Source: a virus
IMG/VR virus record: IMGVR_UViG_3300017743_000109
Coordinates: 1-25,396 of that record
Reading direction: 5' to 3' (one strand)
Length of the DNA stretch: 25,396 nucleotides
Positions 1 through 14,321 of the stretch are shown here, piece by piece. The notes beneath the pieces are model-generated. The model did not search any database. It worked only from the letters and a program-made list of their open reading frames with translations, and was not told the DNA's origin. The first letter of the stretch is position 1; the number at the start of each line of letters is the position of its first letter. Made by a program: the position numbers and the translations under genes.

Positions 1-203
1 CAACAGCGGTAGGGTTTAAGTGGTCTGCAAGTTCTGGCAGTAGTAACCAAGGTTCTTTAGGTTATCTTCGTTCTACAGGTGTTTCAATACAATTAAAAGT
101 TGTGAATGGAAATGTTGGAAGTAATCCTACTATCTATACAACAAACCCAACGAGTCAATTGATTCAATTGTCGATGTCTAAGGGTGGTGGAGATTTACAA
201 TAA
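1..203 (+). CDS. C-terminal end of an upstream gene, probably virion structural
   Basis: An open frame enters from the left edge (codons in phase with position 3) and stops at the TAA at 201-203. The visible 66 residues are rich in Ser, Gly, Asn and Thr and include a short beta-like segment (VSIQLKVVNGNVGSNPTIY), ending in SKGGGDLQ. No motif identifies a family. The composition and the position next to fibre-type genes suggest a tail fibre or other virion protein. Its stop overlaps the ATG of the next gene (TAATG), so the two are probably translationally coupled. Without the N-terminal part nothing more can be said. Confidence 0.6.
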   Translation, partial: TAVGFKWSASSGSSNQGSLGYLRSTGVSIQLKVVNGNVGSNPTIYTTNPTSQLIQLSMSKGGGDLQ

Positions 204-1375
204 TGGCCATTGCTCAACAACCATATAGTTTACAACAACCTACTATAGTTTCATATAGGATGCCTTCTATAGCAAATAGACAAAACGCCTATCCCTATAT
301 TGCAAATGCACAAGAACCAAATATTAGAAATGCAAGACAGCCTGCAACTTATGACACACAGGGTCAGACACCTACTACATATAGAAATCCTGTAAATGCA
401 AGACAGCCTAATATTAGAGAAGCAAGACAACCTAGTACATACCAACATAGAAGTCCTTTAACATATAGTCACAGGTCACCATTTACCTATGCACATAGAA
501 GTCCGTTCACTTATAGAAGTCCAGTGAATGCACAGGAACCAAACATAAGAGAGGCAAGACAACCTAATACATACCAACATAGAAGTCCTTTAACATATAG
601 TCACAGGTCACCGTCTACGTATCAACATCAAAGTCCACTTACATATAGAAGTCCTGTAGAGGGAAGAGAACCTAACATACGTGATGCAAGACAACCTGCG
701 ACATATGCTCATAGGTCACCGTTTACCTACGAGACAAGAAGTCCGTTTACATATAATAGACAAGCAATAAGACAAGTTTCATACAACCATAGGTCTCCAT
801 TTACATATAGAAACCCTAGTAATGCACAAACAAATGTTGTAAAAGAAAGTCAAACACCATTTACGTATCAAAGAACTGGTCAATTACCAAGTATCTATCA
901 ACATAGAAGTCCATTTACGTATGCAACAACAGGTCAACAACCAGCTATTGGTAATCGCGATGTACCTTATCCTTACATTGCAACTGCAACTGAACCTAAT
1001 ATTAGAAACAAGCAAGTATCTTATCCATATATTGCAGATGGAAGAAGTCCATTTACCTATGCACATAGAAGTCCGTTCACATATCAAAATTCAGTACAAG
1101 GACAACAACCTAATATTAGAAATACACAAACACCTTTCTTCTATAATGCTGGAGCTCAGATATCATATCAACACCAAAGTCCATTTACCTATCAAGTTAC
1201 TTACTCACATCAAAGAGTCATACCTAGAAATGCAAAAGTTAAAGGTGTATTCATTAATGACAATGGAACTCTAAGAAAGGTAGAAGAAGCTTATGTAAAT
1301 GATAGTGGAACTGCAAGGAAAACACACCAATCTGTACCAACTGCTCAGTTCCCAATGGGTGAGTTTGGTGCTTAA
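203..1375 (+). CDS. Octad-repeat virion protein 1 (proline-anchored repeats)
   Basis: A 390-residue protein. Residues about 25-335 are imperfect repeats of eight residues beginning with Pro, of the types P-F-T-Y-x-H-R-S and P-N-I-R-x-x-Q-x, with shorter six-residue steps (PVNAQE, PFTYRN) between them. I count six exact HRSPFTY heptads, plus HRSPLTY and other variants. There is no Cys. The C-terminal 60 residues leave the repeat and read KVKGVFINDNGTLRKV and EEAYVNDSGTARK, two copies of a short beta motif often seen in phage fibre proteins. Two further repeat proteins of the same kind lie at 8912 and 10444; there the non-repeat cap is N-terminal or almost absent. The start overlaps the upstream stop. 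The product is probably a virion fibre or surface filament; I do not recognise a characterised family. Long antisense frames across it are by-products of the repeats. Confidence 0.8.
   Translation: MAIAQQPYSLQQPTIVSYRMPSIANRQNAYPYIANAQEPNIRNARQPATYDTQGQTPTTYRNPVNARQPNIREARQPSTYQHRSPLTYSHRSPFTYAHRSPFTYRSPVNAQEPNIREARQPNTYQHRSPLTYSHRSPSTYQHQSPLTYRSPVEGREPNIRDARQPATYAHRSPFTYETRSPFTYNRQAIRQVSYNHRSPFTYRNPSNAQTNVVKESQTPFTYQRTGQLPSIYQHRSPFTYATTGQQPAIGNRDVPYPYIATATEPNIRNKQVSYPYIADGRSPFTYAHRSPFTYQNSVQGQQPNIRNTQTPFFYNAGAQISYQHQSPFTYQVTYSHQRVIPRNAKVKGVFINDNGTLRKVEEAYVNDSGTARKTHQSVPTAQFPMGEFGA
440..1200 (+). repeat. Imperfect 24-base coding repeats (array 1)
   Basis: Degenerate 24-base units, one per eight-residue octad, for example units coding x-H-R-S-P-F-T-Y. 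The same peptide is written with several codon sets (AGA-AGT-CCA, AGG-TCA-CCG, AGG-TCT-CCA for Arg-Ser-Pro). Confidence 0.8.
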
Positions 1376-1398
1376 TTCATAAGTAAAACTTAAAAAGG

Positions 1399-1406
1399 TA
1401 TAAATA
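1399..1406 (+). promoter_or_regulatory. T4-type late promoter box, start codon at predicted +1
   Basis: Perfect TATAAATA in the 36-base gap after the first octad-repeat gene, ending six positions before the A of the ATG at 1412. It starts a transcript of fibre genes that would have no leader. Confidence 0.8.
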
Positions 1407-1411
1407 GTTAT

Positions 1412-1741
1412 ATGGCTATTCTTGCAAACATATTTATCGACCAACATACAGACTTCAGCATTACTGTAGATGTCACCGATGCAACTGGAAATGTTCTTAA
1501 CTTAACAGGTTATACTGCAGCTGCACAAATGAGAAAGACATATACTTCAACAAATGCAAGTGCAACATTCAGTACTGTAGTATCAGCGTCTGATGGTAAG
1601 GTAACTTTATCATTAACCGATACTGTTACTGGTGCATTGGAGCCAGGCAGGTATGTTTACGATATGACTGTAACTAGTGGTTCAACAACGACTAGAGTAA
1701 TAGAAGGACAAGCCATCGTAACCCCAAGTGTGACGAGGTAA
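1412..1741 (+). CDS. Small beta-sandwich baseplate/fibre protein (BppU-N-like)
   Basis: A 109-residue, all-beta-looking protein: an N-terminal strand pair (FSITVDVTDATGNVLNLTGY), a central AAAQMRKTY segment, then TLSLTDTVTGALEPGRYVYD and a final strand pair. The order 'disordered drive, D-x-x-G-x-x-x-x-LTGY, ... LEPGRYVYDM' resembles the N-terminal domain of BppU-type receptor-binding baseplate proteins and small Ig-like phage structural proteins. That similarity is judged by eye. No good Shine-Dalgarno sequence is at normal distance (an AAGG at 1395-1398 lies 13 bases from the ATG). A perfect T4 late-promoter box at 1399-1406 puts the predicted +1 on the A of the ATG. The next gene follows 4 bases after the stop. 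Confidence 0.75.
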   Translation: MAILANIFIDQHTDFSITVDVTDATGNVLNLTGYTAAAQMRKTYTSTNASATFSTVVSASDGKVTLSLTDTVTGALEPGRYVYDMTVTSGSTTTRVIEGQAIVTPSVTR

Positions 1742-1745
1742 TAAT

Positions 1746-1991
1746 ATGGCAATTAGAGGAACATTAAGTAGAGTTGTAACCGTCGGTGGTAAAGTCACTG
1801 GTGGTGGAAACATCAAAGCAACACAGGTTGCTATGGGTGGAACTTCTGCAGCCCAAACAGACATCACTGCAAAATCAATCAATGAACTTGCAGACGTAAA
1901 TGCTTCGGAAACAGATGATGGATTACTATCATATGACCAAGCATCAGACAAATGGACTACAACTACCGTTTTAGACGGTGGGACATTCTAA
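1746..1991 (+). CDS. Small fibre-associated protein with DGGTF terminus
   Basis: An 81-residue protein with a Gly/Thr-rich N-terminal half (VVTVGGKVTGGGNIKATQVA) and a C-terminal motif ELADVNASETDDGLLSYDQA followed by KWTTTTVLDGGTF. The pattern 'LxDVn...dGxLxYdxxxxkW' is frequent in tail-fibre proteins of marine phages and usually marks a short beta module. The last five residues, DGGTF, are identical to the end of the 530-residue protein at 2137 and nearly the same as the end of the 72-residue protein at 6027 (DGGTI). Four bases separate it from the previous gene, so both are probably on one transcript. Function unknown; a small virion decoration or fibre-junction protein is likely. Confidence 0.65.
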   Translation: MAIRGTLSRVVTVGGKVTGGGNIKATQVAMGGTSAAQTDITAKSINELADVNASETDDGLLSYDQASDKWTTTTVLDGGTF

Positions 1992-1994
1992 AAC

Positions 1995-2002
1995 ACTAAA
2001 TA
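1995..2002 (+). promoter_or_regulatory. Weak late promoter-like box
   Basis: ACTAAATA, two changes from TATAAATA, 142 bases before the ATG at 2137. If used it would give an unusually long leader holding the three hairpins at 2018-2100. Weak evidence. Confidence 0.3.
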
Positions 2003-2017
2003 AGTGTACAAATCAAG

Positions 2018-2100
2018 GTTGTCGACAGTGAGACAACGACCCACATTGTGAGTGGACAGACTATATAATGAACTCAACTTCTCGGGATAGTGAACGAGAA
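2018..2100 (+). promoter_or_regulatory. Cluster of three small hairpins in the leader of the 530-aa fibre gene
   Basis: GTTGTC/GACAAC (2018-2023/2032-2037), CCAC/GTGG (2041-2044/2052-2055) and TTCTCG/CGAGAA (2079-2084/2095-2100). The loops are GACAGTGA, ATTGTGA and GGATAGTGAA, all ending in a GTGA(A) run. They lie in the 145-base gap between 1991 and 2137, which holds no gene. Role unknown: a protein-binding leader or RNA-processing region is possible. Confidence 0.45.
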
Positions 2101-2136
2101 ACAACAACTAATAATTTTATTTAAAAGGAAATAAAA

Positions 2137-3729
2137 ATGGCAACAGTAATTCAGATTAAAAGAAGTACAGGTGTATCTGCACCAGCTATCTCCGACTTAG
2201 CGGAAGGTGAATTAGCGTACGTACAGGATAGGTCGAATTCGGGTGCTGGAGCGAAACTATACATTGAATCAGTAGACTCTGATAATAGTACTGCATTAAT
2301 CCAAGCAATTGGTGGTAAGTACTATACAGATATGCTAGCTGGTTCTACTGCAACTCCTGCTGACTTAAAAGTCGGTAATAGTGCAAGTACAGGTGGTAGT
2401 ATTAAGTTAATGGAAGACACAGACAACGGAACAAACTTCGTTGCTCTTAAATCTCCAAACACTTTAGGCTCTTCAGTAACGTGGACTCTTCCTTCAACGG
2501 ACGGTAGTGCTAACCAAGTTCTTGGAACAGACGGTTCAGGCGCATTATCATTCTTATCAACAACATCAACCCTAGCAGGTGCTTCGGATTCAGATATTTC
2601 ATCTCCAACAGGCGGACAAATGCTTGTTCATGATGGAAGTAATTCATTCGATAACGTATCAATGAGTGGTGATGCAACTATGGCATCAAGTGGTGCTGTA
2701 ACAATCGCTGCAAACGCAGTGCAAGTTGGAAACATTGACTTCTTTGTCGATGAAGACAACATGGCATCCGACTCAGCAGTTAAAGTTCCTTCACAACAAT
2801 CAGTTAAAGCTTATGTTGATGCAGTAACTACAGAACTACAATCTCAAGACCTTGACGGTGCAGCGGATAGTGGTACTTTAGCAGTTGATTTAGATACACA
2901 ATCATTAACTTTCACAGGTGGAACAGGTGTAACAACTTCTGCAAGTGGTCAAGCGGTAGAGTTTGCAATCGGTCAGGCAGTTGGAACTTCAGACAACGTA
3001 GAATTCGGTAACGTAACAGTTGGCGGAACACTAAACTCAGACGACATCACTGCAACAACATTGACTGCAAGTGGTAACGTTGTTGTAACAGGTAACTTAA
3101 GTGTTAACGGAACTACAACTACAGTTAATTCAACTACTGTATCAATCGCAGACCCAGTTTTCGAACTTGGTGCTGATAGTTCAGACGATAACTTAGACCG
3201 TGGTATTAAGTTTAAATACAACGATGGTTCTGCTAGAGTTGGTTTCTTTGGTTACGATGAAAATACAACTAAGTTCGTAGCTCTTAAACAAGCTACAGAT
3301 TCTTCCTCAGTATTCAGTGGAACTGCTATGGACGCAGTATTCGGTGGTGTGGAAGCAACGAACTTAACACTAAGTGGGTCAATCAAAGAGATTGATGGAG
3401 CTGCACCAACTAATGGTCAGATTCTTATGGGTCACACAGCCAATGGAGACATGGCTTTGGGAACTATTACTGCTGGTGATGGTATCGATGTAACTAACGG
3501 TGCTGGTTCTATATCAATCAGTGCTGAACAATCAAGTGCATCTAATTTAGGTGTCGTGATTGTTGATGCTGGTGAAGGTATGGACGTATCATACTCAAGT
3601 GGTACAGCAACTGTAAGTGGAGAAGATGCAACTACAACTAATAAAGGTATTGCAAGTTTTGCCACAGCAAACTTTACAGTATCAAGTGGTGCAGTTTCAA
3701 TCACTGGTATTGACGGCGGAACATTTTAA
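2137..3729 (+). CDS. Tail fibre-like protein, modular (530 aa)
   Basis: The N-terminus (TVIQIKRSTGVSAPAISDL, then AEGELAYVQD) is a fibre N-terminal module common in T4-like marine phages and is shared with the gene at 3768. Further modules are visible: a beta-rich stretch with LPSTDGSANQVLGTDGSGAL (residues about 118-137), a DEDNMASDSAVKVPSQQSVK module near residues 205-225 that is also in the 871-residue protein, and GNVVVTGNLSVNGTTTTVNS near residue 312, which recurs in the genes at 5087 and 6245. The end is GIDGGTF. The low-complexity Gly/Ser/Thr/Ala/Asp composition suits a beta-structured trimeric fibre. A good Shine-Dalgarno (AAAAGGA) stands before the ATG. It is preceded by a 145-base gap with three small hairpins. 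No enzymatic motif is seen. Confidence 0.8.
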   Translation: MATVIQIKRSTGVSAPAISDLAEGELAYVQDRSNSGAGAKLYIESVDSDNSTALIQAIGGKYYTDMLAGSTATPADLKVGNSASTGGSIKLMEDTDNGTNFVALKSPNTLGSSVTWTLPSTDGSANQVLGTDGSGALSFLSTTSTLAGASDSDISSPTGGQMLVHDGSNSFDNVSMSGDATMASSGAVTIAANAVQVGNIDFFVDEDNMASDSAVKVPSQQSVKAYVDAVTTELQSQDLDGAADSGTLAVDLDTQSLTFTGGTGVTTSASGQAVEFAIGQAVGTSDNVEFGNVTVGGTLNSDDITATTLTASGNVVVTGNLSVNGTTTTVNSTTVSIADPVFELGADSSDDNLDRGIKFKYNDGSARVGFFGYDENTTKFVALKQATDSSSVFSGTAMDAVFGGVEATNLTLSGSIKEIDGAAPTNGQILMGHTANGDMALGTITAGDGIDVTNGAGSISISAEQSSASNLGVVIVDAGEGMDVSYSSGTATVSGEDATTTNKGIASFATANFTVSSGAVSITGIDGGTF

Positions 3730-3767
3730 TTAATATTTCATCAATCAATCAATACTAGGAGAGTAAC

Positions 3768-4595
3768 ATGGCAACAGTTATTAATTTTAAAAGAAGTTCG
3801 ACTCAGAATGCAGTTCCGACTACTAGTGATTTATCACTAGGTGAAGTCGCGATTAATACCTATCATGGTAGAATGTATACTGAAAAGAACGATGGGTCAG
3901 CAGCGATTACAGAAATCGGTTCTAATCCTAAAACTCTTTCTGTTAATGACGCCTACTCTTTCCCAACTAGTGACGGAACGTCGAATCAAGTATTGTCAAC
4001 AAATGGTTCAGGCACACTTTCATTTAGTAATCAACCATCAAGTGGAGTTGTAACATTTACCTACACTATAGGCTCAACGACAACAGTCATCACTGGAAAC
4101 GATGATGATAGTAACTCGTTAGTTTATCAAGCAGGTAGTGAACAAGTTTACTTAAATGGTGTAAAACTAATTGGTGGTGGCATAGACTATGCAACGACAA
4201 ACAGTACGACAATAACACTACAAGCAAATGCTTTAAGTGGTGACGTGTTAGAAATAGTTGCAATTACAGCTGCAGCGAACCTTGTACAAGGGTTCTTCAC
4301 TGCAAGTGTTTTAACAGCGACAACAGCAGACCAAGTATTATCTTCTAATAGTGTGGCAATTAAGGGCATCAAGTATGTAATTAATGCAACTCATGCTTCG
4401 GCAGGGACACATGCATGTGAAGTTTTACTTATTAATAACGGCTCGAATGCATACTTCGTACAATACGGTGATGTGTATTCAACAGCAAGTTTGTTTACAT
4501 TGAGTGCAGACGTTGACTCGGGGGCAATGAGATTACTCGTTACTCCAGCCAACACAAACACTACAATTGATACATTCCAAATTAGACATTCTTAA
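3768..4595 (+). CDS. Tail fibre-like protein with shared C-terminal domain (275 aa)
   Basis: The N-terminus (TVINFKRSSTQNAVPTTSDL, then SLGEVAIN) is homologous by eye to that of the gene at 2137. A FPTSDGTSNQVLSTNGSGTL module follows near residues 66-85 (also in the genes at 2137 and 5087), then a VTFTYTIGSTTT region and a KLIGGGIDYATT segment typical of fibre beta-hairpins. The last ~95 residues (IKYVINATHAS...EVLLINNGSNAYFVQYGD...LLVTPANTNTTIDTFQ) form a domain that recurs in the two following genes. Strong Shine-Dalgarno AGGAGAG before the ATG. Only 14 bases separate its stop from the next ATG. Likely a virion fibre or tip subunit. Confidence 0.75.
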   Translation: MATVINFKRSSTQNAVPTTSDLSLGEVAINTYHGRMYTEKNDGSAAITEIGSNPKTLSVNDAYSFPTSDGTSNQVLSTNGSGTLSFSNQPSSGVVTFTYTIGSTTTVITGNDDDSNSLVYQAGSEQVYLNGVKLIGGGIDYATTNSTTITLQANALSGDVLEIVAITAAANLVQGFFTASVLTATTADQVLSSNSVAIKGIKYVINATHASAGTHACEVLLINNGSNAYFVQYGDVYSTASLFTLSADVDSGAMRLLVTPANTNTTIDTFQIRHS

Positions 4596-4609
4596 GGGGG
4601 GATTAACTA

Positions 4610-5023
4610 ATGGCAAAATCAAATAGTTTTAAATTAGCAGAATTAATCCGTGTCTTCCAGTACGATACATCAACAGATAAAATCAGTACAAGTAAGTCCC
4701 TTTTAGATGCAAACAGAAGTAAAGGCGATTTAACTACTACTGCAACTACCCAAGTTAACTTGGATACGTTTGCAAAAGCAAGTTATAGAGCTGCACGATA
4801 TGTTATTGCAATGACTGAAGGGAGTGACTTTCATAGTACCGAACTAATATTAGTTCATGATGGTACCAATGTAACACTAACAGCTTACGGCACGTTAAAA
4901 AGTGGTTCTGCTCTAGCAACATTTGATGCAGATATAAGTGGAAGTGACCTCAGATTGAGAATCACACCTGCTTCAACTTCATCAACCGTTACTAAGTTTG
5001 ATAGAACAACAGTAGACGCATAA
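4610..5023 (+). CDS. Stand-alone copy of the shared fibre C-terminal domain (137 aa)
   Basis: A short N-terminal part (residues 1-40, SFKLAELIRVFQYDTSTDKI) is followed by a ~95-residue domain (NLDTFAKASYRAARYVIAMT ... STELILVHDGTNVTLTAYGT ... LRLRITPASTSSTVTKFDRT, VDA). This domain aligns by eye along its whole length with the C-terminus of the 277-residue protein at 5087 and more weakly with that of the gene at 3768. The gene therefore looks like the domain on its own, perhaps an exchangeable fibre tip or host-contact module. A G-rich Shine-Dalgarno (AAGGGGGGA) precedes the ATG. The gene ends just before a strong terminator. No catalytic motif is visible. Confidence 0.75.
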   Translation: MAKSNSFKLAELIRVFQYDTSTDKISTSKSLLDANRSKGDLTTTATTQVNLDTFAKASYRAARYVIAMTEGSDFHSTELILVHDGTNVTLTAYGTLKSGSALATFDADISGSDLRLRITPASTSSTVTKFDRTTVDA

Positions 5024-5043
5024 ACAAAAGACCAAAATCTTTT

Positions 5044-5070
5044 AAGGGGAACTTCGGTTCCCCTTTTTTT
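5044..5070 (+). terminator. Rho-independent terminator with UUCG tetraloop
   Basis: Inverted repeat AAGGGGAAC (5044-5052) / GTTCCCCTT (5057-5065) around a TTCG loop, then a T run to 5070. It stands 20 bases after the stop at 5023. C(UUCG)G is the typical stable loop of T4-family terminators. A late-promoter box begins 4 bases after the T run. Confidence 0.93.
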
Positions 5071-5073
5071 AGC

Positions 5074-5081
5074 TATAAATA
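5074..5081 (+). promoter_or_regulatory. T4-type late promoter box, start codon at predicted +1
   Basis: Perfect TATAAATA octamer. In T4 this box occupies -13 to -6, which would place +1 at 5087, the A of the ATG of the next gene. There is no Shine-Dalgarno between box and ATG (GAACT only), so the late mRNA would be leaderless. Confidence 0.8.
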
Positions 5082-5086
5082 GAACT

Positions 5087-5920
5087 ATGGCAACTCAATC
5101 TAAATTTTTAGCAGATGTAGGGATACAAACGGCAGGAGATACATCCATAGGTGGGAATCTTGTTGTTACTGGTGACCTAACTGTTAACGGAACCAATACA
5201 ATTATTGATTCTACAACCCAATCGGTTACAGATTCATTGATAGAACTTGCAAGTGGTAACACAACTGCAGACACTATTGACATAGGAATATATGGTAACT
5301 ATAATGACGGTTTAAGTGGAGAGGGTGGTGCAAGTGAATATACAGGTCTATTTAGAGACGCGTCAGACTCCACATGGAAGTTGTTTGATGGTCTAGAAGT
5401 AGAACCTTCTACCACAGTTAATTTAAGTGGTAGTGGATATGCTTTAGCAGACTTACATGTTGGTGACTTAGTTGCAACAACATTGACTGCTACAAATAGT
5501 TTAACAGGTGCAAGTATTACTTATCCAACTTCAGACGGAAGTAGTGGTCAAGTATTAACCACAAATGGTAGTGGAACACTATCTTTTGCAACACCTACAG
5601 GATTAGAAGGTGGAACGGTAACAACTACATCAACCTCTGAAGCAACCATGGATACTTTTTCAACGAGCTCTTATAGAAGTGCAAAGTACGAAGTGTCTAT
5701 TTCAGATTCAACAAGTGGAACGTATCAGTTCACAGAACTTTCAATAGTTCATAATGGTACTACTGCAAGTGTTTCACAATACGGTACAGTTTTGACAGGA
5801 ACTACCGAACTTGCAACGTTTGGTGTAGATATAAACATCGGAACGTTACGTATCAGAACTACTCCTGCTACCAGTAATTCAACGGTCTTTAAATTTAAGA
5901 AGATTTTAGTTGACGCTTAA
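5087..5920 (+). CDS. Tail fibre-like protein with shared middle and C-terminal modules (277 aa)
   Basis: Domain order: a short N-terminus (KFLADVGIQTAGD); the GNLVVTGDLTVNGTNTIIDS module with SLIELASGN and a following FRDASDSTWKLF segment (residues about 24-105), also found in the genes at 2137 and 6245; a YPTSDGSSGQVLTTNGSGTL segment near residue 145; and the ~95-residue C-terminal domain (MDTFSTSSYRSAKYEVSISD ... FTELSIVHNGTTASVSQYGT ... LRIRTTPATSNSTVFKFKKI, VDA), closely matching the stand-alone protein at 4610. It is the first gene after the terminator and has its own late promoter. It appears leaderless. Likely a trimeric fibre or tip protein; no enzymatic motif is seen. Confidence 0.78.
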   Translation: MATQSKFLADVGIQTAGDTSIGGNLVVTGDLTVNGTNTIIDSTTQSVTDSLIELASGNTTADTIDIGIYGNYNDGLSGEGGASEYTGLFRDASDSTWKLFDGLEVEPSTTVNLSGSGYALADLHVGDLVATTLTATNSLTGASITYPTSDGSSGQVLTTNGSGTLSFATPTGLEGGTVTTTSTSEATMDTFSTSSYRSAKYEVSISDSTSGTYQFTELSIVHNGTTASVSQYGTVLTGTTELATFGVDINIGTLRIRTTPATSNSTVFKFKKILVDA

Positions 5921-5964
5921 AAAGATAAAGTAATTTTAAAAAGACAGATTATAGGACATTCTTA

Positions 5965-6012
5965 AGAGGAGTGAATCGATAAATAAATGTAACACCCCTC
6001 AAGGTAAACCTT
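5965..6012 (+). promoter_or_regulatory. Late promoter-like box within an inverted repeat, before the 72-aa gene
   Basis: GATAAATA at 5978-5985 (one change from consensus) lies between GAGGAGTG (5965-5972) and CACCCCTC (5993-6000), an inverted repeat with one mismatch. A second short hairpin AAGGT/ACCTT is at 6001-6012, just before the ribosome site. The box is the probable late promoter for 6027 onward; the function of the inverted repeat is unknown. Confidence 0.45.
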
Positions 6013-6026
6013 AAAAGGACACATAA

Positions 6027-6245
6027 ATGGCAACACAAAATACATTCGTAATTGAGTACGGACTTACAGTTGGTTCAACAGAAGTTATTTCCTCAGCAGG
6101 AAAACTAGCTGTATCAGCAATATCTTTACTTACTTCAGATAACTTAACGGAAGGTTCCACGAACCAATACTTTACTTCAAGTAGATTTAACACTTCATTC
6201 GATACTAGATTATCAAATGCAGTTATTGATGGGGGTACAATCTAA
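6027..6245 (+). CDS. Small fibre-module protein with DGGTI terminus (72 aa)
   Basis: A 72-residue protein: an N-terminal FVIEYGLTVGSTEVISSAGK resembling the start of the next gene (FILKNGLSVGTNDVLDSSGD), then SDNLTEGSTNQYFTSSRF, the 'EGSxNxYFT' motif repeated in the 871-residue fibre, and an AVIDGGTI end. It looks like a miniature fibre made of the N-terminal anchoring segment plus one motif. Its stop overlaps the ATG of the large fibre gene (TAATG at 6243-6247), implying translational coupling and perhaps assembly with it. Shine-Dalgarno AAAAGGA at 6012-6018. Confidence 0.72.
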   Translation: MATQNTFVIEYGLTVGSTEVISSAGKLAVSAISLLTSDNLTEGSTNQYFTSSRFNTSFDTRLSNAVIDGGTI

Positions 6246-8860
6246 TGGCAGGGGAAAAGAATTTTATACTAAAGAACGGTCTATCCGTAGGAACAAATGA
6301 TGTTCTAGATAGTTCGGGTGACTTAGTAGCAGGTGCATTTGGTACTGCAGCTATAGAGGTCATCGATGACCACGTTGCAAATACCTTACTAACAGCAGGT
6401 GCTGGTATTGGATTATCATATGATGATTCAGCTGGGACACTTACAATTACAGGTAATGTTGGTGATATCACAGGAGTTAACGCAGGACTTGGTTTAACTG
6501 GTACTGCAACTAGTGGAGATGCAACATTAAACATTGGTGCTGGTACAGGTATTACTGTAAATGCAGACGATATTGCAATCAACTTTAAAGACGAAGACAA
6601 TATGGCATCAGATAGTGCCGTACATGCAGCTACTCAACAATCAATTAAAGCATATGTTGATACTCAAGTTGCAACAGTTCCAGTTGGAGACATAACAAGT
6701 GTTGTTGCTGGAGCAGGTCTAACAGGTGGCGGAACAAGTGGTGATGTAACAGTAAATGCTATTGCTGGAACAGGTATCACAGTTAATGCAGATGACATTG
6801 CAATCGACCTTAAAGACGAAGACGATATGTCTTCGAACAGTGCATCTCACGCTGCATCACAACAATCAATTAAAGCTTATGTTGATGCAAGTATTCTAAC
6901 AAAAGACAATTCAGACGAAATTACAGAAGGTTCAAGTAACCTTTACTTTACAGATGCAAGAGCAAGAGCTGCTCTATCAGCAACTGGTGATATATCATAC
7001 AACAGCACAACTGGTGTATTCAGTTTCACAAACGATGCTGGTGACATCGAATCAGTAGTTGCTGGTTCGGGTTTAACTGGTGGTGCAACAAGTGGAGCTG
7101 CAACATTAAACATTGGTGCTGGAACTGGTATTACAGTTAATGCAAATGATATTGCAGTCAATATGGGTGCATTTGATTCAGATGACTTAAACGAAGGCTC
7201 AACTAATTTATATCACACTACAGAAAGAGTTCAAGATATTGCTGGAGCAATGTTCAGTTCAAATACTGAAACAGGTATTACTTCAACATATCAAGATGCA
7301 GATGGAACTATTGACCTTGCAGTAGACGCAGAATTTATTTCAGATACAGTTGGTAATATGGTCACTTCTAATACAGAAAGTGGTCTTACAGTTACGTATC
7401 AAGATGCAGATAACACTTTAGACTTTGCAGTCGGAACACTTAACCAAGATACAACAGGATTAGCAGGAACTGCTACTGCACTTGCAAGTGCAAGAACTAT
7501 CTCGGGTGTTTCATTTGACGGTACAGCAAACATCACACTAAACACTGGTGGAATCACAGAGAGTGGTAACCTTTACTTTACAAATGAAAGAGTGGATGAC
7601 AGAGTCGGTTCATTGATTGTTGGTGGAACAAACATAACTGCAACATATGATGATGCAGCTGGAACACTTACAATTGACGGAAACGCAGCGGACATCACAG
7701 GTGTTACAGCTGGAGACGGTCTATCGGGTGGTGGTTCAAGTGGTGCAGTTACTTTAAACCTAGATGCTTCAGTAGCAGGTGACGGTCTTGCACATTCAAG
7801 TGGTGTTCTATCAGTCGGAGTAGACGATAGTTCAATCGAAACAAATTCAGATGCATTAAGAGTTAAAGCACTTGGTGTTACTAATGCCATGTTAGCAGGT
7901 TCAATTGCAAACAGTAAACTTGCAAATGACAGTGTAACAATTAACTCACAGTCAGTAGACTTAGGTGCTTCAGTTACTTTAAACACATCTCACATTGGTG
8001 AGAGTGGTAACTTATACTATACAGATGAAAGAGTTGACGATAGAGTTAACGCTTTAATTACTGCTGGTGTAAACGTTGCAACAACATATGATGATGCAGC
8101 TGGAACACTAGAAATTAGAGTACCTTACGAAAACATTCAAGACACAGTTGGAACTCAATTAGCAACTAACGGTTCACACACAAACATCACTGCAACATAT
8201 GATGATGCTGGTGACGGTGCAGTCGACCTTGCAATTACAGATGCAACTATCAGAGGAAAAGTTTCAGTAACAGACGCAGGTGGAGATGGTTCACTTGCAT
8301 ATAACAATTCAACTGGTGTTATTACATATACAGGGCCAAGTGCAGCTGAGACAAGAGCACATTTCTCTAATGGTACTGGTGTTGCTATCAGTTCGGGTCA
8401 AGTTAGTATCGGTCAGGCAGTTGCAACAACTAGTGATGTTCAATTTGCAGACGTATCTGCAAGTGGTAACCTTGTAGTTACAGGTAACTTAACAGTAAAT
8501 GGTTCAACAGTAACAAATAGTTCAACTAACACAACTATCGAAGATTCGTTGATTGAATTAGGAACAGGGACAACTGGTTCTCCATCGGGAGACGCAGGTA
8601 TTGTCATTGAGAGAGGTGATGAAAGTAACGTGTTTATGGGTTGGGACGATAGTGCATCAAGTTTTGCATTCGGAACAACTACTGCAACAGGTGCTTCAAC
8701 TGGTGCATTATCAGTAACACCAGCAGCGGTATCCACAGGTGCATTAACAATAACGAATGCATCTAACAGTGGTGGAACTGCAAGAAATGTTTACCAATCA
8801 ACTTCTGCACCTGGCGGTTCAGATGGAGCGGTTGGTGATATGTGGATTCTTTACTCCTAA
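6245..8860 (+). CDS. Large tail fibre-like protein (871 aa)
   Basis: This is the largest protein of the window and is built of beta-type repeats. Repeated elements are GxGLTGxxTSGxxTLNIGAG followed by TGITVNADDIAI (at least three copies in the first 320 residues), DEDNMASDSAVHAATQQSIK (near 115 and again near 190), 'NLYFTDxR / NLYHTTER / NLYYTDERVDDRV', and TYDDAAGTLxI / TYQDADxTLDxAV. The C-terminal part has the GNLVVTGNLTVNGSTVTNSS module (about residue 740), a GWDDSASSFAFGTT segment and a final STSAPGGSDGAVGDMWILYS, an ending common in marine phage fibres. This composition is typical of long trimeric tail fibres that carry receptor binding. It is coupled to the 72-residue gene upstream. 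Which segment contacts the host cannot be read from the sequence. Confidence 0.85.
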   Translation: MAGEKNFILKNGLSVGTNDVLDSSGDLVAGAFGTAAIEVIDDHVANTLLTAGAGIGLSYDDSAGTLTITGNVGDITGVNAGLGLTGTATSGDATLNIGAGTGITVNADDIAINFKDEDNMASDSAVHAATQQSIKAYVDTQVATVPVGDITSVVAGAGLTGGGTSGDVTVNAIAGTGITVNADDIAIDLKDEDDMSSNSASHAASQQSIKAYVDASILTKDNSDEITEGSSNLYFTDARARAALSATGDISYNSTTGVFSFTNDAGDIESVVAGSGLTGGATSGAATLNIGAGTGITVNANDIAVNMGAFDSDDLNEGSTNLYHTTERVQDIAGAMFSSNTETGITSTYQDADGTIDLAVDAEFISDTVGNMVTSNTESGLTVTYQDADNTLDFAVGTLNQDTTGLAGTATALASARTISGVSFDGTANITLNTGGITESGNLYFTNERVDDRVGSLIVGGTNITATYDDAAGTLTIDGNAADITGVTAGDGLSGGGSSGAVTLNLDASVAGDGLAHSSGVLSVGVDDSSIETNSDALRVKALGVTNAMLAGSIANSKLANDSVTINSQSVDLGASVTLNTSHIGESGNLYYTDERVDDRVNALITAGVNVATTYDDAAGTLEIRVPYENIQDTVGTQLATNGSHTNITATYDDAGDGAVDLAITDATIRGKVSVTDAGGDGSLAYNNSTGVITYTGPSAAETRAHFSNGTGVAISSGQVSIGQAVATTSDVQFADVSASGNLVVTGNLTVNGSTVTNSSTNTTIEDSLIELGTGTTGSPSGDAGIVIERGDESNVFMGWDDSASSFAFGTTTATGASTGALSVTPAAVSTGALTITNASNSGGTARNVYQSTSAPGGSDGAVGDMWILYS

Positions 8861-8879
8861 TCTAGGAGTTTAGGATTCT

Positions 8880-8887
8880 AATAAATA
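8880..8887 (+). promoter_or_regulatory. Late promoter-like box before octad-repeat gene 2
   Basis: AATAAATA, one change from TATAAATA, in the 51-base gap after the large fibre gene; predicted +1 near 8893, giving a ~20-base leader to the ATG at 8912. Confidence 0.45.
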
Positions 8888-8911
8888 ACAGTATTATTAA
8901 TGGATAACTAA

Positions 8912-10405
8912 ATGGCAACAGGTTCACAAAAGGTCAAAACACCAGCAGGTTGGAATTCAACTCAAGGTGCATGGGTAAAAACAGCTAGTTCCACATGGAA
9001 AGCAGTTGACCAAATCTACATTAAAACCCCTACAGGATGGAATAACGCATCGGGGCAGACTGCGACTCAAGTTCCTTATCCATACATTGCAAATGGACAA
9101 GAACCCAATATAAGAAACAAACAGAATCCGTATCCTTATATTGCAAATGCACAAGAGCCTAACATAAGGAACCAACAGAATCCGTATCCTTATATTGCAA
9201 ATGCACAAGAACCTAATATAAGAGACCAACAACAGCCGTATCCTTATATAGCACAAGCAAGACAACCTAGTACATACCAACATAGAAGTCCATTTACATA
9301 TGCTAGACAAGGTCAAACACCAACGACTTATCAACATAGGTCACCGTTTACATATCAAAACCCTGTAAATGCACAAGAACCAAACATAAGGAATGCACAG
9401 ACACCGTTCACTTACAGAAATCCAGTGAATGGACAAGAACCTAATATTAGAGATGCAAGACAGCCTGCAACTTATCAACATAGAAGTCCTTTAACGTATA
9501 GTCATAGGTCTCCATTTACGTATCAACATAGGTCACCGTTTACATATAGGAATCCAGTGAATGGACAAGCACCTTTTATTAGAGATGCAAGACAACCTTC
9601 TACGTATCAACATAGGTCACCGTTAACATATTCACATAGGTCGCCTTTGGAATATTCTCATAGGTCTCCATTTACATATAGAAGTCCTGTATCTGCACAA
9701 GAGCCTAACATAAGAGAAGCAAGACAACCTAGTACATACCAACATAGAAGTCCTTTGACATATAATCATAGGTCTCCATTTACGTATCAACATAGGTCAC
9801 CGTTCACATATAGGAACCCTGTGTCTGCTCAAGAACCAAATATTCGTTCTGCACAACAACCGTATCCTTATATTGCAAATGCACAAGAACCTAATATTAG
9901 GTCACAACAAGAACCAAATATTAGGTCACAACAAGAACCTAATATTAGAAATAATCAGGCAGCGTTTACTTATAACCATAGGTCTCCGTTTACATATAGG
10001 AATCCTGTATCTGCACAAGAACCTAATATTCGTTCTGCACAACAACCTAACATTAGAGATGCAAGGAGTCCATTCACGTATGATGCAAGGTATCCAGCGA
10101 ATGCACAGCAACCTTTTACATTCCAAGCACCATTTACGTACAGGAACCCTACTAATGCAAGGCAACCTAACGATGCAAGGAACCCATTCACATATAGACA
10201 ACCTTATATAGCGAATGCAAGACAACCAAATAGTGCAAGAAACCCATTTACATATAGAGTGCCTTACATTGCAAACGCAAGAACTGGTGCAAACTCTAGG
10301 GCCCCAAGTATTGCACAACAACCCATAACGTACCAACACAGAAGTCCGTTTACATACTACTTCACTTTTGGTGGTGGTAATCCACCTAATGTCATGGAGC
10401 CGTAA
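8912..10405 (+). CDS. Octad-repeat virion protein 2
   Basis: A 497-residue protein. The N-terminal ~50 residues form a cap of W/K motifs (TPAGWNSTQGAWVKTASSTW, IYIKTPTGWN) like those that attach or terminate phage fibres. From about residue 54 to 480 the chain is proline-anchored octads (PFTYxHRS, PNIRxxQE) with PYPYIANAQE ten-residue and PVNAQE six-residue variants. I count nine exact HRSPFTY. There is no Cys. It ends in a short Gly-rich tail (FGGGNPPNVMEP). Its last repeats (ARYPANAQQPFTFQAPFTYR onward) are almost the same as the first repeats of the next gene. A weak Shine-Dalgarno precedes the ATG; a small ATG-GAT-AAC-TAA reading frame at 8899-8910 is probably not relevant. Probable virion filament. 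Confidence 0.8.
   Translation: MATGSQKVKTPAGWNSTQGAWVKTASSTWKAVDQIYIKTPTGWNNASGQTATQVPYPYIANGQEPNIRNKQNPYPYIANAQEPNIRNQQNPYPYIANAQEPNIRDQQQPYPYIAQARQPSTYQHRSPFTYARQGQTPTTYQHRSPFTYQNPVNAQEPNIRNAQTPFTYRNPVNGQEPNIRDARQPATYQHRSPLTYSHRSPFTYQHRSPFTYRNPVNGQAPFIRDARQPSTYQHRSPLTYSHRSPLEYSHRSPFTYRSPVSAQEPNIREARQPSTYQHRSPLTYNHRSPFTYQHRSPFTYRNPVSAQEPNIRSAQQPYPYIANAQEPNIRSQQEPNIRSQQEPNIRNNQAAFTYNHRSPFTYRNPVSAQEPNIRSAQQPNIRDARSPFTYDARYPANAQQPFTFQAPFTYRNPTNARQPNDARNPFTYRQPYIANARQPNSARNPFTYRVPYIANARTGANSRAPSIAQQPITYQHRSPFTYYFTFGGGNPPNVMEP
9240..10360 (+). repeat. Imperfect 24-base coding repeats (array 2)
   Basis: The same 24-base octad units as array 1. Bases 9097-9145, just before the main block, are identical to 11727-11775 in array 3 (49 bases), which points to recent exchange or duplication between arrays. 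Confidence 0.8.
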
Positions 10406-10443
10406 GCAAATGAGAAATATTAATATAACAGGAACAATCTAAA

Positions 10444-12066
10444 ATGCCAATAGGTCAAAGACAACAACCGACTATCAAAAACGGACAAGTGTCCGTTGAT
10501 GTACAGACGCCTTCGATTGTTCAACAACCATTTACGTATAGTGCAAGGTATCCAGCGAATGCACAGCAACCGTTCACATTCCAAGCACCATTTACGTATA
10601 ATGCTAGTTATCCAGCGAATGGTCAACAACCGTTCACATTCCAAGCACCATTTACATATAGGAACCCTACTAACGCAAGACAACCTAATAATGCAAGGAA
10701 TCCGTTTACATACAGAGTACCTTACATTGCTAATGCAAGACAACCGTTTACTTATAACCATAGGTCTCCGTTTACATATAATCATAGGTCACCATTTACA
10801 TATAGAAGTCCTGTATCTGCACAACAACCTAACATAAGAGAAGCAAGACAACCGAGTTCATATCAACATAGGTCACCTTTAACGTATTCACATAGGTCAC
10901 CGTTAACGTATTCTCATAGGTCACCATTTACATATGCAAGACAGGGTCAAACACCGTTTACTTATAACCACAGGTCTCCATTTACATATAGAAGTCCTGT
11001 AAATGGACAAGAACCTAATATACGTTCGGCACAAGAACCTAATATTAGAAGTCAACAAGAACCTAATATTAGAAATGCACAAGCAGCGTTTACTTATAAC
11101 CATAGGTCTCCGTTTACATACAGAAATCCTGTAAATGGACAAGAGCCTAATATTAGAAACCAACAAGAACCGAACATTAGGTCACAACAAGAACCAAACA
11201 TAAGAAACAATCAGACACCGTTTACGTATAGTCATAGGTCACCGTTTACTTATCAGAATCCTAGTAATGGACAAGAACCTAATATTAGAAACATACAACA
11301 ACCGAACATTAGGTCACAACAAGAACCTAATATTAGAAACAATCAGGCAGCGTTTACCTATAGTCATAGGTCACCGTTTACTTATCAGAATCCTAGTAAT
11401 GCACAAGAGCCTAATATTAGAAACCAACAAGAACCGAACATTAGGTCACAACAAGAACCTAATATTAGAAATGCACAAACACCGTTTACGTATAGTCATA
11501 GGTCACCATTTACATATAGAAGTCCTGTATCTGCACAGGAACCTAATATTAGAGATGCACAACAACCTAATATTAGAAGTCAACAAGAACCTAATATTAG
11601 AAACAATCAGACACCGTTTACGTATAGTCATAGGTCACCGTTTACTTATCAGAATCCTAGTAATGCACGTCAACCTTCTACGTATCAACATAGGTCACCG
11701 TTCACTTATAGGAATCCTGTAAATGCACAAGAACCCAATATAAGAAACAAACAGAATCCGTATCCTTATATTGCAGCTGCTCAAGAACCAAACATAAGGA
11801 ATGCACAGACACCGTTTACGTATCAAAGAACTGGTCAAACAACTGTAACATATTCTCACAGGTCACCGTTTACGTATGCTAGACAAGGTCAGACACCAAC
11901 GACTTATAACCATAGAAGTCCGTTTACATATCAAAGAACAGGTCAGACACCAACGACTTATCAGCATAGAAGTCCATTTACCTATTCAAGACAAGGGAGA
12001 ACACCCGAAGCAAGATGGGATGGAGTGGTATCACAACAATGGCCTGCAACACCAATCACATCATAG
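10444..12066 (+). CDS. Octad-repeat virion protein 3
   Basis: A 540-residue protein, almost entirely repeat: only ~20 residues at the start (MPIGQRQQPTIKNGQVSVDV) and ~25 at the end (GRTPEARWDGVVSQQWPATP) are unique. I count 13 exact HRSPFTY and 18 PNIR units. In the middle third a higher-order pattern recurs: one HRSPFTY step, a six-residue NPxNGQE step, then three PNIRxxQx octads, then PFTY again. There is no Cys and no Lys-rich region; charge comes from Arg, His and Glu. Shine-Dalgarno AGGAAC lies before the ATG. It is followed by a strong terminator that closes the fibre module. Likely an elongated virion fibre or coat filament; no characterised family is recognised. Confidence 0.8.
   Translation: MPIGQRQQPTIKNGQVSVDVQTPSIVQQPFTYSARYPANAQQPFTFQAPFTYNASYPANGQQPFTFQAPFTYRNPTNARQPNNARNPFTYRVPYIANARQPFTYNHRSPFTYNHRSPFTYRSPVSAQQPNIREARQPSSYQHRSPLTYSHRSPLTYSHRSPFTYARQGQTPFTYNHRSPFTYRSPVNGQEPNIRSAQEPNIRSQQEPNIRNAQAAFTYNHRSPFTYRNPVNGQEPNIRNQQEPNIRSQQEPNIRNNQTPFTYSHRSPFTYQNPSNGQEPNIRNIQQPNIRSQQEPNIRNNQAAFTYSHRSPFTYQNPSNAQEPNIRNQQEPNIRSQQEPNIRNAQTPFTYSHRSPFTYRSPVSAQEPNIRDAQQPNIRSQQEPNIRNNQTPFTYSHRSPFTYQNPSNARQPSTYQHRSPFTYRNPVNAQEPNIRNKQNPYPYIAAAQEPNIRNAQTPFTYQRTGQTTVTYSHRSPFTYARQGQTPTTYNHRSPFTYQRTGQTPTTYQHRSPFTYSRQGRTPEARWDGVVSQQWPATPITS
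10520..11990 (+). repeat. Imperfect 24-base coding repeats (array 3)
   Basis: The densest array. It includes a larger unit of roughly 130-150 bases (PFTY, NPxN, then three PNIR octads) repeated four to five times between about 10960 and 11660. It is a likely site of copy-number change by homologous recombination. Confidence 0.8.
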
Positions 12067-12152: not shown

Positions 12153-13730
12153 ATGCAGAAAATTGAAACCCTAGAACAAGCAAAAGAATTAATAAAACCT
12201 TATGACCCTAAGATAACCTCACAAGAAAGACAGGCCATTGGTAATTTTCATCTTGGTGCATTTAATATAGAACCAGGCTATTCAAAAACTTCAGAAACCT
12301 ATAAAATACTTGAGTGGATGTTTAAAGAAATTCTACCACCAGTAAAGATTGCAAAGTGGAAAGACTTTGAATATCTAAGAAAAGAAAACAGATTTGGTGG
12401 GTTCAATGGATTAAGAAATGAGTCAGTAACTTATCACAAGTTTTTACCAGTTGGTTATGCAGAGAAACCTAGAAAGGTAATTCCAGGCGTAGCAGGTATG
12501 GACATGAAAGATTCTAATGGATATGTAGATATAGATACATTAATCGATTGGGACACAGTTGAAAACAGAGACCAACATGCAGAGGGTTCATTGTTGTCTA
12601 TGTATTATCACGGTGCAAAAGCACACTGGCTAATTCAAAGTATCCAAGAGGAAGGTTTAAGAGCTCCTATTCAAGGATATGTTGTAGATAATGGTGTCAC
12701 TGGTATGAATACTGAATCTACTTACACATTTAGAATACACCCAGGCTCTATTCGTTCGGGTGTCTTTGAAGAGATGCAAGACAACGATATGGAAATTATG
12801 GTAATAGATAATTTTGATGTTGTGAAAGTTGAACCGACAAGCCTTGACAGCGTATTAGAGATGTGGTATACTAAGTTAAAGAGATTAGACAAGCAATACC
12901 ATTGTTCATTCACATATGTGGATGGTTGTATTGAATATAATACTGCATTAATGGACTTAGATTTCAGAGATGAAGTACATGCATTTAACAAACAGGTCTA
13001 TGAACTTGCAAAAGGTAAACCCCTAACAATCTATATTGGACATGATAGTAGACATGGAGATTTGTCTAAGTGTTCTAAGTTTGCAATCCTAGAAAGTATT
13101 AAAAACGGATTTGGTAGAGGTTGGATGCATGACCAAGTTAAATGGGAACCCGAAGTTAAAATACTTGACATTTCTAAGATTCCCGAGTATACTAGAGAGT
13201 ATGCAAATCAAAGTACTGAATTTACATACAGTAGATTCCTAATACCTTACTTAGAGAACTACGAAGGATTTAGTATCTTTATTGATGATGACTTCATCTT
13301 TAATAAAAGTATACTACCAATGTTTTACTACTTAAACCCTAATGATGCTGTTGCATGTATACAATATCCACAATACAAACATGATGAAACAAAGTTTGAT
13401 GGTGAAGTTAATATAGATTACCCTAAGAAGCTTTGGTCTAGTATGATGGTATTCAATAATGGACATGAAGACTGTAAGAAGCTAACACCCGAAGTTGTTA
13501 ACACTTGGACAGGAAAACAGCTACATCAATTTGAGTGGACAGATAAAATCTCTAAAATACCCGAACATTATATCTTTGTAGAAGGATATGATAACCATGA
13601 AGAAAAGTACAACTACAGTGGTATACATTATACACGTGGTGGCCCATGGGTAAAAGGGATGGATTATTCAACCATAAATAATCTTGAAGACTTTTTAAAA
13701 GTGAAAAGAAGATTGCCAATTGGCGATTAG
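12153..13730 (+). CDS. ParB-like / GT8-like glycosyltransferase fusion protein
   Basis: A 525-residue protein with two recognisable parts. Residues about 155-218 (HWLIQSIQEEGLRAPIQGYV ... FRIHPGSIRSGVFEEM ... MEIMVID) have the 'hxxSIxxxGhxxPI ... y.i..GxxR ... hxVxVxd' layout of the ParB/sulfiredoxin-like fold. Residues about 291-505 resemble small GT8-type (GT-A fold) glycosyltransferases: IYIGHDSR at the start, STEFTYSRFLIPYL at 354-367, the metal/nucleotide-sugar motif IDDDF with Asp378-380, LWSSMMVFNNGHED at 427-440, and IHYTRGGPW at 491-499 near the end. The expected activity is sugar transfer from a nucleotide sugar to a protein, glycan or DNA; the acceptor is unknown. The first 150 residues are unassigned. 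Shine-Dalgarno TGGAGA precedes the ATG. Neighbours are fibre genes upstream and two dioxygenases downstream, which makes virion-protein glycosylation a reasonable guess. Confidence 0.7.
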   Translation: MQKIETLEQAKELIKPYDPKITSQERQAIGNFHLGAFNIEPGYSKTSETYKILEWMFKEILPPVKIAKWKDFEYLRKENRFGGFNGLRNESVTYHKFLPVGYAEKPRKVIPGVAGMDMKDSNGYVDIDTLIDWDTVENRDQHAEGSLLSMYYHGAKAHWLIQSIQEEGLRAPIQGYVVDNGVTGMNTESTYTFRIHPGSIRSGVFEEMQDNDMEIMVIDNFDVVKVEPTSLDSVLEMWYTKLKRLDKQYHCSFTYVDGCIEYNTALMDLDFRDEVHAFNKQVYELAKGKPLTIYIGHDSRHGDLSKCSKFAILESIKNGFGRGWMHDQVKWEPEVKILDISKIPEYTREYANQSTEFTYSRFLIPYLENYEGFSIFIDDDFIFNKSILPMFYYLNPNDAVACIQYPQYKHDETKFDGEVNIDYPKKLWSSMMVFNNGHEDCKKLTPEVVNTWTGKQLHQFEWTDKISKIPEHYIFVEGYDNHEEKYNYSGIHYTRGGPWVKGMDYSTINNLEDFLKVKRRLPIGD

Positions 13731-13741
13731 TATGTTATAAT
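13713..13741 (+). promoter_or_regulatory. Sigma70-type promoter
   Basis: TTGCCA (13713-13718), 17-base spacer, TATAAT (13736-13741): five of six and six of six matches to the housekeeping consensus at optimal spacing. The predicted start is near 13748, just before the GAGGAA ribosome site and the ATG at 13761. It suggests host-polymerase (early) transcription of the accessory genes from 13761 onward. Confidence 0.65.
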
Positions 13742-13760
13742 ATTACCGAGGAACTAAATT

Positions 13761-14318: not shown

Positions 14319-14321
14319 TCA

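What the first reader, a model, noticed from the sequence alone, without database searches (positions are those of the whole stretch)
203..12066. Family of three proteins built from proline-anchored octapeptide repeats
Three genes encode long arrays of P-x7 units (PFTYxHRS and PNIRxxQE types) interrupted by six-residue steps, with almost no other sequence in the third protein. The repeats contain no Cys or enzymatic motif, and Tyr/Pro/Arg recur with a period of eight. I know no characterised fold for this repeat. A regular period suggests a solenoid or extended filament, perhaps a virion surface fibre. Two large arrays side by side plus one 8 kb away suggests an important, expandable structure.
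Basis: partly seen in the sequence, partly recalled or inferred. Interest (0 to 1): 0.75.

Follow-up and report, generated by a model that had tools for sequence, protein, structure and literature searches.

The report
Phage fibre proteins that zip antiparallel
A marine phage encodes pairs of very long repeat proteins whose sequences match each other when one is read forwards and its partner backwards, unit by unit and residue by residue, which strongly suggests that the two chains lie side by side in opposite directions to build a long tail fibre, a two-gene pairing code I have not seen described.

Summary
The repeats are real. The window, a Kyanoviridae-like marine myovirus fragment, carries four array proteins, not three: A0 (only its C-terminus is inside, nt 3-203), A, B and C. 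The constraint is not a period of eight but parity: nearly every Pro-Pro step is even (2, 6, 8, 10...), as in one continuous extended strand.

Reading B forwards against C backwards, 93% of prolines coincide in 38 non-redundant phages (parallel 56%; foreign partners 55%; B or C against itself 54%). Array spans match (r=0.98 over 162-620 residues). Opposed units obey a code: PNIRxxQE:PxTYxHRS, PVNAQE:PFTYRN, PNNARQ:PFTFQN, PYIANARQ:PFTYxAR; residues P:P, T:Q, I:R, Y:A/G, F:Q/E, H:R. A code learned on B/C predicts antiparallel pairing of A0 with A in 28 of 28 cases. Seven fused A0-A proteins score as hairpins. Several close relatives carry equal indels at mirror positions of both genes.

Best explanation: A0:A and B:C are obligate antiparallel beta-ribbon partners forming long tail fibres. 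Sequence evidence for pairing is strong; beta structure, stoichiometry and virion location are inferred. AlphaFold2 of C alone gave no fold. No solved structure or cultured phage carries the family.

The parts
3..203 (+). C-terminal 66 residues of A0, the partner of A (rest lies outside the window); end of its beta-sandwich-like tip domain
   Evidence: Frame 3 of nt 1-203 matches the C-terminus of the 580-aa A0 of L171, whose next gene encodes a protein identical to window A
203..1375 (+). A (390 aa): array aa 7-379, inferred to run antiparallel to A0; C-terminal base module aa 331-390 (AKVKGVFINDNG...)
   Evidence: Gap-free antiparallel match of L171 A0 24-339 with A 16-331, score 317 against 18 parallel; C-terminal module conserved
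8912..9070 (+). N-terminal cap of B (aa 1-53, KVKTPAGWNSTQGAWVKT...)
   Evidence: 87% mean column identity in 12 diverse relatives
8912..10405 (+). B (497 aa): array aa 55-491; blocks aa 55-272 and 275-481 are complementary to C; short GGG tail, replaced in relatives by a Hint domain or other C-terminal domains
10444..12066 (+). C (540 aa): array aa 9-521; aa 304-521 opposite B 55-272, aa 7-213 opposite B 275-481; aa 214-303 lack a partner in this assembly; conserved C-terminal RWDGVVSQQWPATPITS
   Evidence: near-twin L002 is gap-free, B 55-569 with C 7-521
1412..1741 (+). Small fibre-assembly-like protein downstream of A
   Evidence: PHROG 1084 (9e-25) and PHROG 3304 'L-shaped tail fiber protein assembly' (2.5e-21)
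2137..8860 (+). Fibre/structural genes between the two array pairs (2137, 3768, 4610, 5087, 6245)
   Evidence: PHROG 697 'structural protein' (1.8e-26, 1.4e-36) and PHROG 17885 'tail fiber protein' (7e-8)
12153..16612 (+). Conserved cassette after C: GT8-like glycosyltransferase (12153-13730), unknown (13761-14318), 2OG-Fe(II) oxygenase (14322-15026), unknown (15007-15912), 2OG-Fe(II) oxygenase (15902-16612); possible modifiers of the arrays, not shown
   Evidence: Pfam/NCBIfam hits; all five genes in 79 of 79 distinct array loci with at least 5.5 kb downstream

Best explanation
The array proteins are obligate pairs. B and C, and likewise A0 and A, lie side by side antiparallel, each as one continuous extended strand, held in a fixed register by a unit-to-unit and residue-to-residue code. 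The result is a very long beta-ribbon that forms the shaft of a tail fibre: about 53-205 nm if 162-620 residues extend at about 3.3 A each. B's N-terminal cap and C's conserved C-terminus would meet at one end; B's variable C-terminus (Gly tail, Hint domain or another domain) and C's N-terminus at the other. In A0:A the tip is A0's C-terminal beta-sandwich-like domain. Prolines face each other at positions of one parity, probably non-hydrogen-bonded sites, leaving the outer edges without NH donors, which would prevent aggregation. Shown by sequence: parity, length matching, mirror register, pairing code, its transfer from B/C to A0/A, hairpins in fused proteins, mirrored indels in some relatives. 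Inferred: direct contact, beta conformation, stoichiometry (a two-stranded ribbon, or three ribbons as in the T4 gp37 needle), virion location, adhesin role.
For: (1) Parity: 4755 even against 45 odd Pro steps in 146 homologues; residue type depends on phase, 0.32-0.42 bits against shuffle maxima of 0.06-0.10. (2) Array spans of B and C agree in 61 phages: r = 0.98, median difference 8 aa, 50/61 within 20 aa; permutation mean 8.9, maximum 19. (3) B forwards against C backwards: 93.4% of prolines coincide in 38 non-redundant pairs, mostly at offset 0; parallel 56.4%, foreign same-length partners 55.5%; B against B or C against C reversed 54%. In 20 stricter pairs 95.1%; second-best register 66%; 4000 step-order shuffles mean 46.8%, maximum 74%. 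(4) PYPY count in B tracks 10-residue unit count in C, Spearman 0.97, 1 to 16 copies. (5) Code: PxTYxHRS:PNIR 177+148, PFTYRN:PVNAQE 149+113, PYIA:PxTYxHRS 98+33, PYIA:PFTYxAR 61+48; PNIR:PNIR not seen among the listed classes; H:R enriched 13-20 fold. (6) Out-of-sample: the code trained on B/C scores A0 against reversed A above all 20 unit shuffles in 28/28 pairs, also without any Pro term; 7/7 fused A0-A proteins score as hairpins. (7) Close relatives show equal indels at mirror positions (L239/L256: B -18,-10,-8; C -8,-10,-18); of 14 asymmetric multi-indel comparisons 6 are mirrored, 0 parallel. (8) Location in the tail-fibre module. (9) C alone has no AlphaFold2 fold, as expected if it needs a partner.
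Against: No structure of a pair was predicted or solved, so contact and beta conformation are inferred. A low-confidence monomer model is also what a disordered protein gives. In close relatives 9 of 17 disjoint comparisons have indels that do not match in the other gene, the window among them (88 residues fewer in B than L002); collapse of tandem repeats during assembly is plausible but untested. Three fused A0-A proteins (L272, L052, L053) do not exceed shuffles by Pro mirroring alone, although they do under the full code. All phages compared belong to one lineage, so counts are not fully independent. Virion location rests on neighbourhood only. A0's tip fold had no significant PDB match.
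Confidence: 0.8

Rival explanations
1. Each protein forms its own homotrimeric or solenoid fibre from octads, like the T4 gp5 C-terminal beta-helix, and the mirror likeness of B and C is a by-product of shared ancestry.
For: Octapeptide repeats of trimeric phage beta-helices are known (gp5, PMC3004832); B and C share unit types.
Against: Steps are mixed 2/6/8/10, not a constant 8, and the gp5 signature of dominant Gly and Val at fixed positions is absent. Ancestry predicts parallel likeness, but the register match is antiparallel (93% against 56%) and opposed units differ in kind. No PDB match by sequence or profile.
Confidence: 0.07
2. The arrays are disordered, sticky coats (extensin- or mussel-foot-like) made adhesive by hydroxylation and glycosylation through the neighbouring 2OG oxygenases and glycosyltransferase.
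For: Low AlphaFold2 confidence; P/Q/N/R/Y-rich composition; GT8-like and two 2OG-oxygenase genes always next door.
Against: Disorder gives no reason for strict parity, mirror register, matched lengths or a residue code. HTVC008M has four 2OG oxygenases before Ad2 at the equivalent place without arrays, so the link is not specific. Modification could still occur on paired fibres.
Confidence: 0.06
3. Mirror order arises because B and C both bind one third component, such as a tape-measure-like protein, in opposite directions, without touching each other.
For: Not excluded by the register data alone.
Against: Residue-level pairs (H:R, I:R, T:Q, Y:A) between the two chains and natural fused hairpins favour direct contact; no third protein of matching length was seen in the window.
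Confidence: 0.05

Closest known systems
T4 long tail fibre tip gp37 (needle inserted in a collar domain)
   Same: Extended phage fibre in which, from my own knowledge of the published structure, strands run down and back as an antiparallel six-stranded needle; the needle lies between collar residues 811-881 and 1010-1026 and binds seven iron ions (PMC6957217).
   Different: No sequence likeness found; no HxH motifs or collar domain seen in A, B or C; here the two strands are separate genes, far longer, with a repeat code.
Synechococcus phage S-SCSM1 'short tail fiber protein' (QFG06509.1)
   Same: A Pro/Arg/Asn array with 27 of 29 even Pro steps and phase-dependent residues, in a protein whose flanks match PDB 9qgo_A 'Tail fiber protein' on both sides of the array.
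   Different: Weak likeness (E = 0.07); one protein; no hairpin signal by Pro mirroring or under the code.
T4 gp5 C-terminal triple beta-helix (octapeptide repeat)
   Same: Repeat of eight residues in a phage tail fibre-like shaft.
   Different: Gly/Val signature, constant period and homotrimer (PMC3004832).
Pfam PF10511 Cementoin (trappin transglutaminase-binding repeat)
   Same: Passes the curated cut-off in B.
   Different: 17 residues only; not found in A or C at the cut-off; animal secreted-protein repeat; likely compositional.
Hint/intein autoprocessing domains
   Same: Intein_splicing and Hint profiles match C-terminal domains of B in L026, L029 and L063, and intein profiles match L058, with scores below the curated cut-offs.
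   Different: Window B has none; the residue after the terminal HN is F or M, so, by general knowledge of inteins, cleavage rather than splicing is expected.

Membership tests
Phage tail fibre proteins | Encoded in the tail-fibre module | tested here: met
   Between PHROG 'L-shaped tail fiber assembly' / 'structural protein' / 'tail fiber protein' genes and Ad2/Hc2
Phage tail fibre proteins | Present in virions | not testable with these tools
   No cultured relative found
T4 gp37-type needle | Antiparallel strands of one fibre | tested here: inconclusive
   Mirror register and code between B and C, A0 and A imply it; contact and fibre structure not shown
T4 gp37-type needle | Collar domain flanking the needle and HxH metal sites | tested here: not met
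   No PDB or Pfam collar match in A, B or C; no HxH seen in the printed sequences
gp5-type octapeptide beta-helix | Constant eight-residue period with dominant Gly and Val | tested here: not met
   Steps 2/6/8/10; Gly and Val each about 2-4% of residues
Monomeric beta-solenoid | Folds on its own | tested here: inconclusive
   AlphaFold2 of C with 43 sequences: pLDDT 36, pTM 0.15
Cementoin (PF10511) | Full-length match of the repeat in the family | tested here: not met
   B only above cut-off, 17 of 30 positions; 13 of 43 C homologues at E 0.01

The most novel reading that the evidence does not exclude
A natural protein-pairing code: two separately encoded chains, hundreds of residues long, recognise each other antiparallel through a small set of complementary 6-, 8- and 10-residue units, much as nucleic acid strands pair, and change length together by compensating mirror-image insertions. 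The units could be recombined to specify strand partners and lengths.
Probability: 0.75. Interest if true: 0.95.

Novelty: categorically new. Interest (0 to 1): 0.9.

Why it matters
If direct pairing is confirmed, this is a protein assembly principle with base-pair-like complementarity. It makes partner choice and fibre length readable from sequence, gives a new class of beta-fibre for structural biology and materials design, and explains how uncultured marine phages build very long fibres. It is directly testable with two genes in E. coli.

Tried and rejected
tblastn of A, B and C against INPHARED: nothing credible in cultured phages except the weak S-SCSM1 lead; Vibrio phage F23s1 is an unrelated perfect octamer tandem. 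PDB by sequence and profile: none. AlphaFold2 of C: no fold. A0 tip: beta-sandwich-like, pLDDT 56, no significant PDB match; two uncharacterised phage proteins in BFVD at E < 0.001 with low TM-score. Prolyl hydroxylation by the two 2OG oxygenases: the cassette occurs in 79/79 loci, but all are one lineage, and HTVC008M has such genes at the same place without arrays; kept only as a possibility. Homology of B's N-terminal cap with A's C-terminal module: hhalign probability 16%, undecided. S-SCSM1 as a hairpin: not supported. Cyanobacterial host: psbA absent from 10 relatives' records, though most records are fragments. Mirror likeness as DNA-level inversion: rejected by reasoning, since reverse-complementing CCN codons does not give Pro.

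Full report
What is there. The window is a 25,396-base virus record of a T4-like marine myovirus; its terminase is closest to Phage C48C1, a Kyanoviridae member, at 56% identity. Repeat genes A (203-1375), B (8912-10405) and C (10444-12066) are confirmed. A fourth, A0, ends at nt 203; it is complete in L171, where the next gene encodes a protein identical to window A. Relatives are common in IMG/VR (266 candidates; 210 from a divergent query). One appeared in the GTDB contigs, inside a MAG contig labelled Sphingobacteriales that carries phage-type genes and is probably misbinned. None was found in cultured phages.

The real rule of the repeat. Pro-Pro steps are even: 4755 even, 45 odd in 146 homologues. 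In the window 41, 62 and 67 consecutive prolines of A, B and C share one parity. Residues depend on phase: P, Q, R, T, I, N with proline; Y, F, A, H, G, V on the other side. From general knowledge of protein structure, a two-residue alternation is the mark of an extended beta-strand; polyproline II would give a period of three. The same peptides are spelled with different codons, so selection acts on protein.

Length matching. In 61 distinct B/C pairs array spans run from 162 to 620 residues, yet B and C agree with r = 0.98 and a median difference of 8 residues; 50 of 61 agree within 20, against 8.9 on average and at most 19 in permutations.

Mirror register. B forwards against C backwards gives 93.4% coinciding prolines in 38 non-redundant pairs, usually at offset 0. 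Parallel gives 56.4%, foreign partners of similar length 55.5%, B or C against its own reverse 54%. With stricter redundancy removal (20 pairs) the value is 95.1%, the second-best register 66%, and 4000 step-order shuffles average 46.8% with a maximum of 74%. The number of PYPY dipeptides in B follows the number of ten-residue units in C (Spearman 0.97).

A pairing code. Among 1068 opposed unit pairs, PxTYxHRS faces PNIR (177 and 148 in the two directions), PFTYRN faces PVNAQE (149 and 113), PVNAQE-class units face PFTFQN (48 and 24), PYIA faces PxTYxHRS (98 and 33) or PFTYxAR (61 and 48). Residue pairs are P:P, T:Q, I:R in one phase and Y:A, Y:G, F:Q/E, S:N, H:R in the other, H:R 13-20 fold over expectation. 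In the stricter set 162 of 199 positions with His face Arg.

Independent test. A residue code learned only from B/C was applied to A0/A. All 28 pairs scored above each of 20 unit shuffles (means: own 149, foreign 56, shuffled 45, parallel 16), and still did when every proline term was removed (121 against 34). Seven proteins in which A0 and A are fused score as hairpins, four of them also by proline mirroring alone. Within 13 phages with all four arrays, B:C (1.13 per residue) and A0:A (0.52) score highest, though C:C also reaches 0.52, so specificity of A0:A over all other pairings is not absolute. Window A matches L171 A0 without gaps over 316 residues.

Mirrored indels. Close relatives show equal indels in opposite order in the two genes, for example L239 against L256: B -18, -10, -8 and C -8, -10, -18, each listed from the N-terminus. 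Among 45 close comparisons with indels 18 are exact mirrors; of 14 asymmetric multi-indel lists 6 are mirrored and none parallel. Against this, 9 of 17 disjoint comparisons are unmatched. The window is one: its B lacks 88 residues present in L002, whose flanks are about 99.5% identical. Its B therefore pairs in two blocks, 55-272 with C 304-521 and 275-481 with C 7-213, leaving C 214-303 without partner, while L002 pairs gap-free over 515 residues, score 791 against 12 parallel. Collapse of near-identical tandem repeats during assembly would explain this; it could also be real.

Function. The pairs flank fibre genes: PHROG 'L-shaped tail fiber assembly', 'structural protein' and 'tail fiber protein' lie between them, and baseplate-type genes lie upstream in L171 (assignment of the first ORF by eye). 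A0 ends in a variable beta-rich domain, B in a Gly tail, a Hint-like domain or other domains. Together with the extended-strand signature this makes long tail fibres with variable tips the most likely role. AlphaFold2 found no fold for C alone, which fits a partner requirement but would also fit disorder. For orientation, published phage needles show that down and up strands can form a fibre: the gp37 needle lies between two parts of its collar domain (PMC6957217). Its six-stranded antiparallel character is from my own knowledge. S-SCSM1 has a parity array within a fibre protein that matches PDB 9qgo_A on both sides, an analogue only; it shows no hairpin signal.

Neighbouring enzymes. A GT8-like glycosyltransferase and two 2OG-Fe(II) oxygenases follow C in 79 of 79 testable loci, but all are one lineage, and HTVC008M has 2OG oxygenases at the equivalent place without arrays. 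Modification of the fibre is possible, not shown.

Novelty. No profile, structure or paper found here describes such a pair; the paper library is limited to open-licence texts. The fibre role is a known kind; a two-gene antiparallel complementarity code is, as far as I could find, new.

Noticed in passing
L026:10001-11962, L027:8121-9812, L029:10001-11767, L058:10001-11776, L063:10001-11512, L174:10579-11793: B homologues ending in Hint/intein-like domains that start GCF and end HN followed by F or M, suggesting autocleavage (perhaps transfer to a nucleophile) rather than splicing.
   Followed up: partly
window 14322-15026: PHROG 274 names this family 'DNA endonuclease V', but Pfam and NCBIfam find a 2OG-Fe(II) oxygenase domain; the PHROG label looks wrong here.
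   Followed up: partly
L174 (JAAXIF010000105.1): A 121-kb contig binned in a Sphingobacteriales MAG carries C and B in reversed gene order with the neighbouring cassette; probably a phage contig in the wrong bin.
   Followed up: partly
L179:5581-6846 (S-SCSM1) and L182-L195: Cyanophage short tail fibre with a Pro/Arg/Asn even-step array inserted where the related PDB chain 9qgo_A has about 33 residues; many 2OG oxygenase genes around it.
   Followed up: partly
window 9001-12000 and 1-1000: GC skew turns negative (-0.13 to -0.22) in the array genes, against mostly positive values elsewhere, from Pro and Gln codons.
   Followed up: no
L199:7562-9557 (HTVC008M): Pelagibacter phage genes annotated as curli CsgF, CsgG and CsgB.
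   Followed up: no
window 8912-10405 compared with L002:10001-11758: B is 88 residues shorter than in a near-identical strain while C is unchanged: assembly collapse of tandem repeats or a real unmatched variant.
   Followed up: partly
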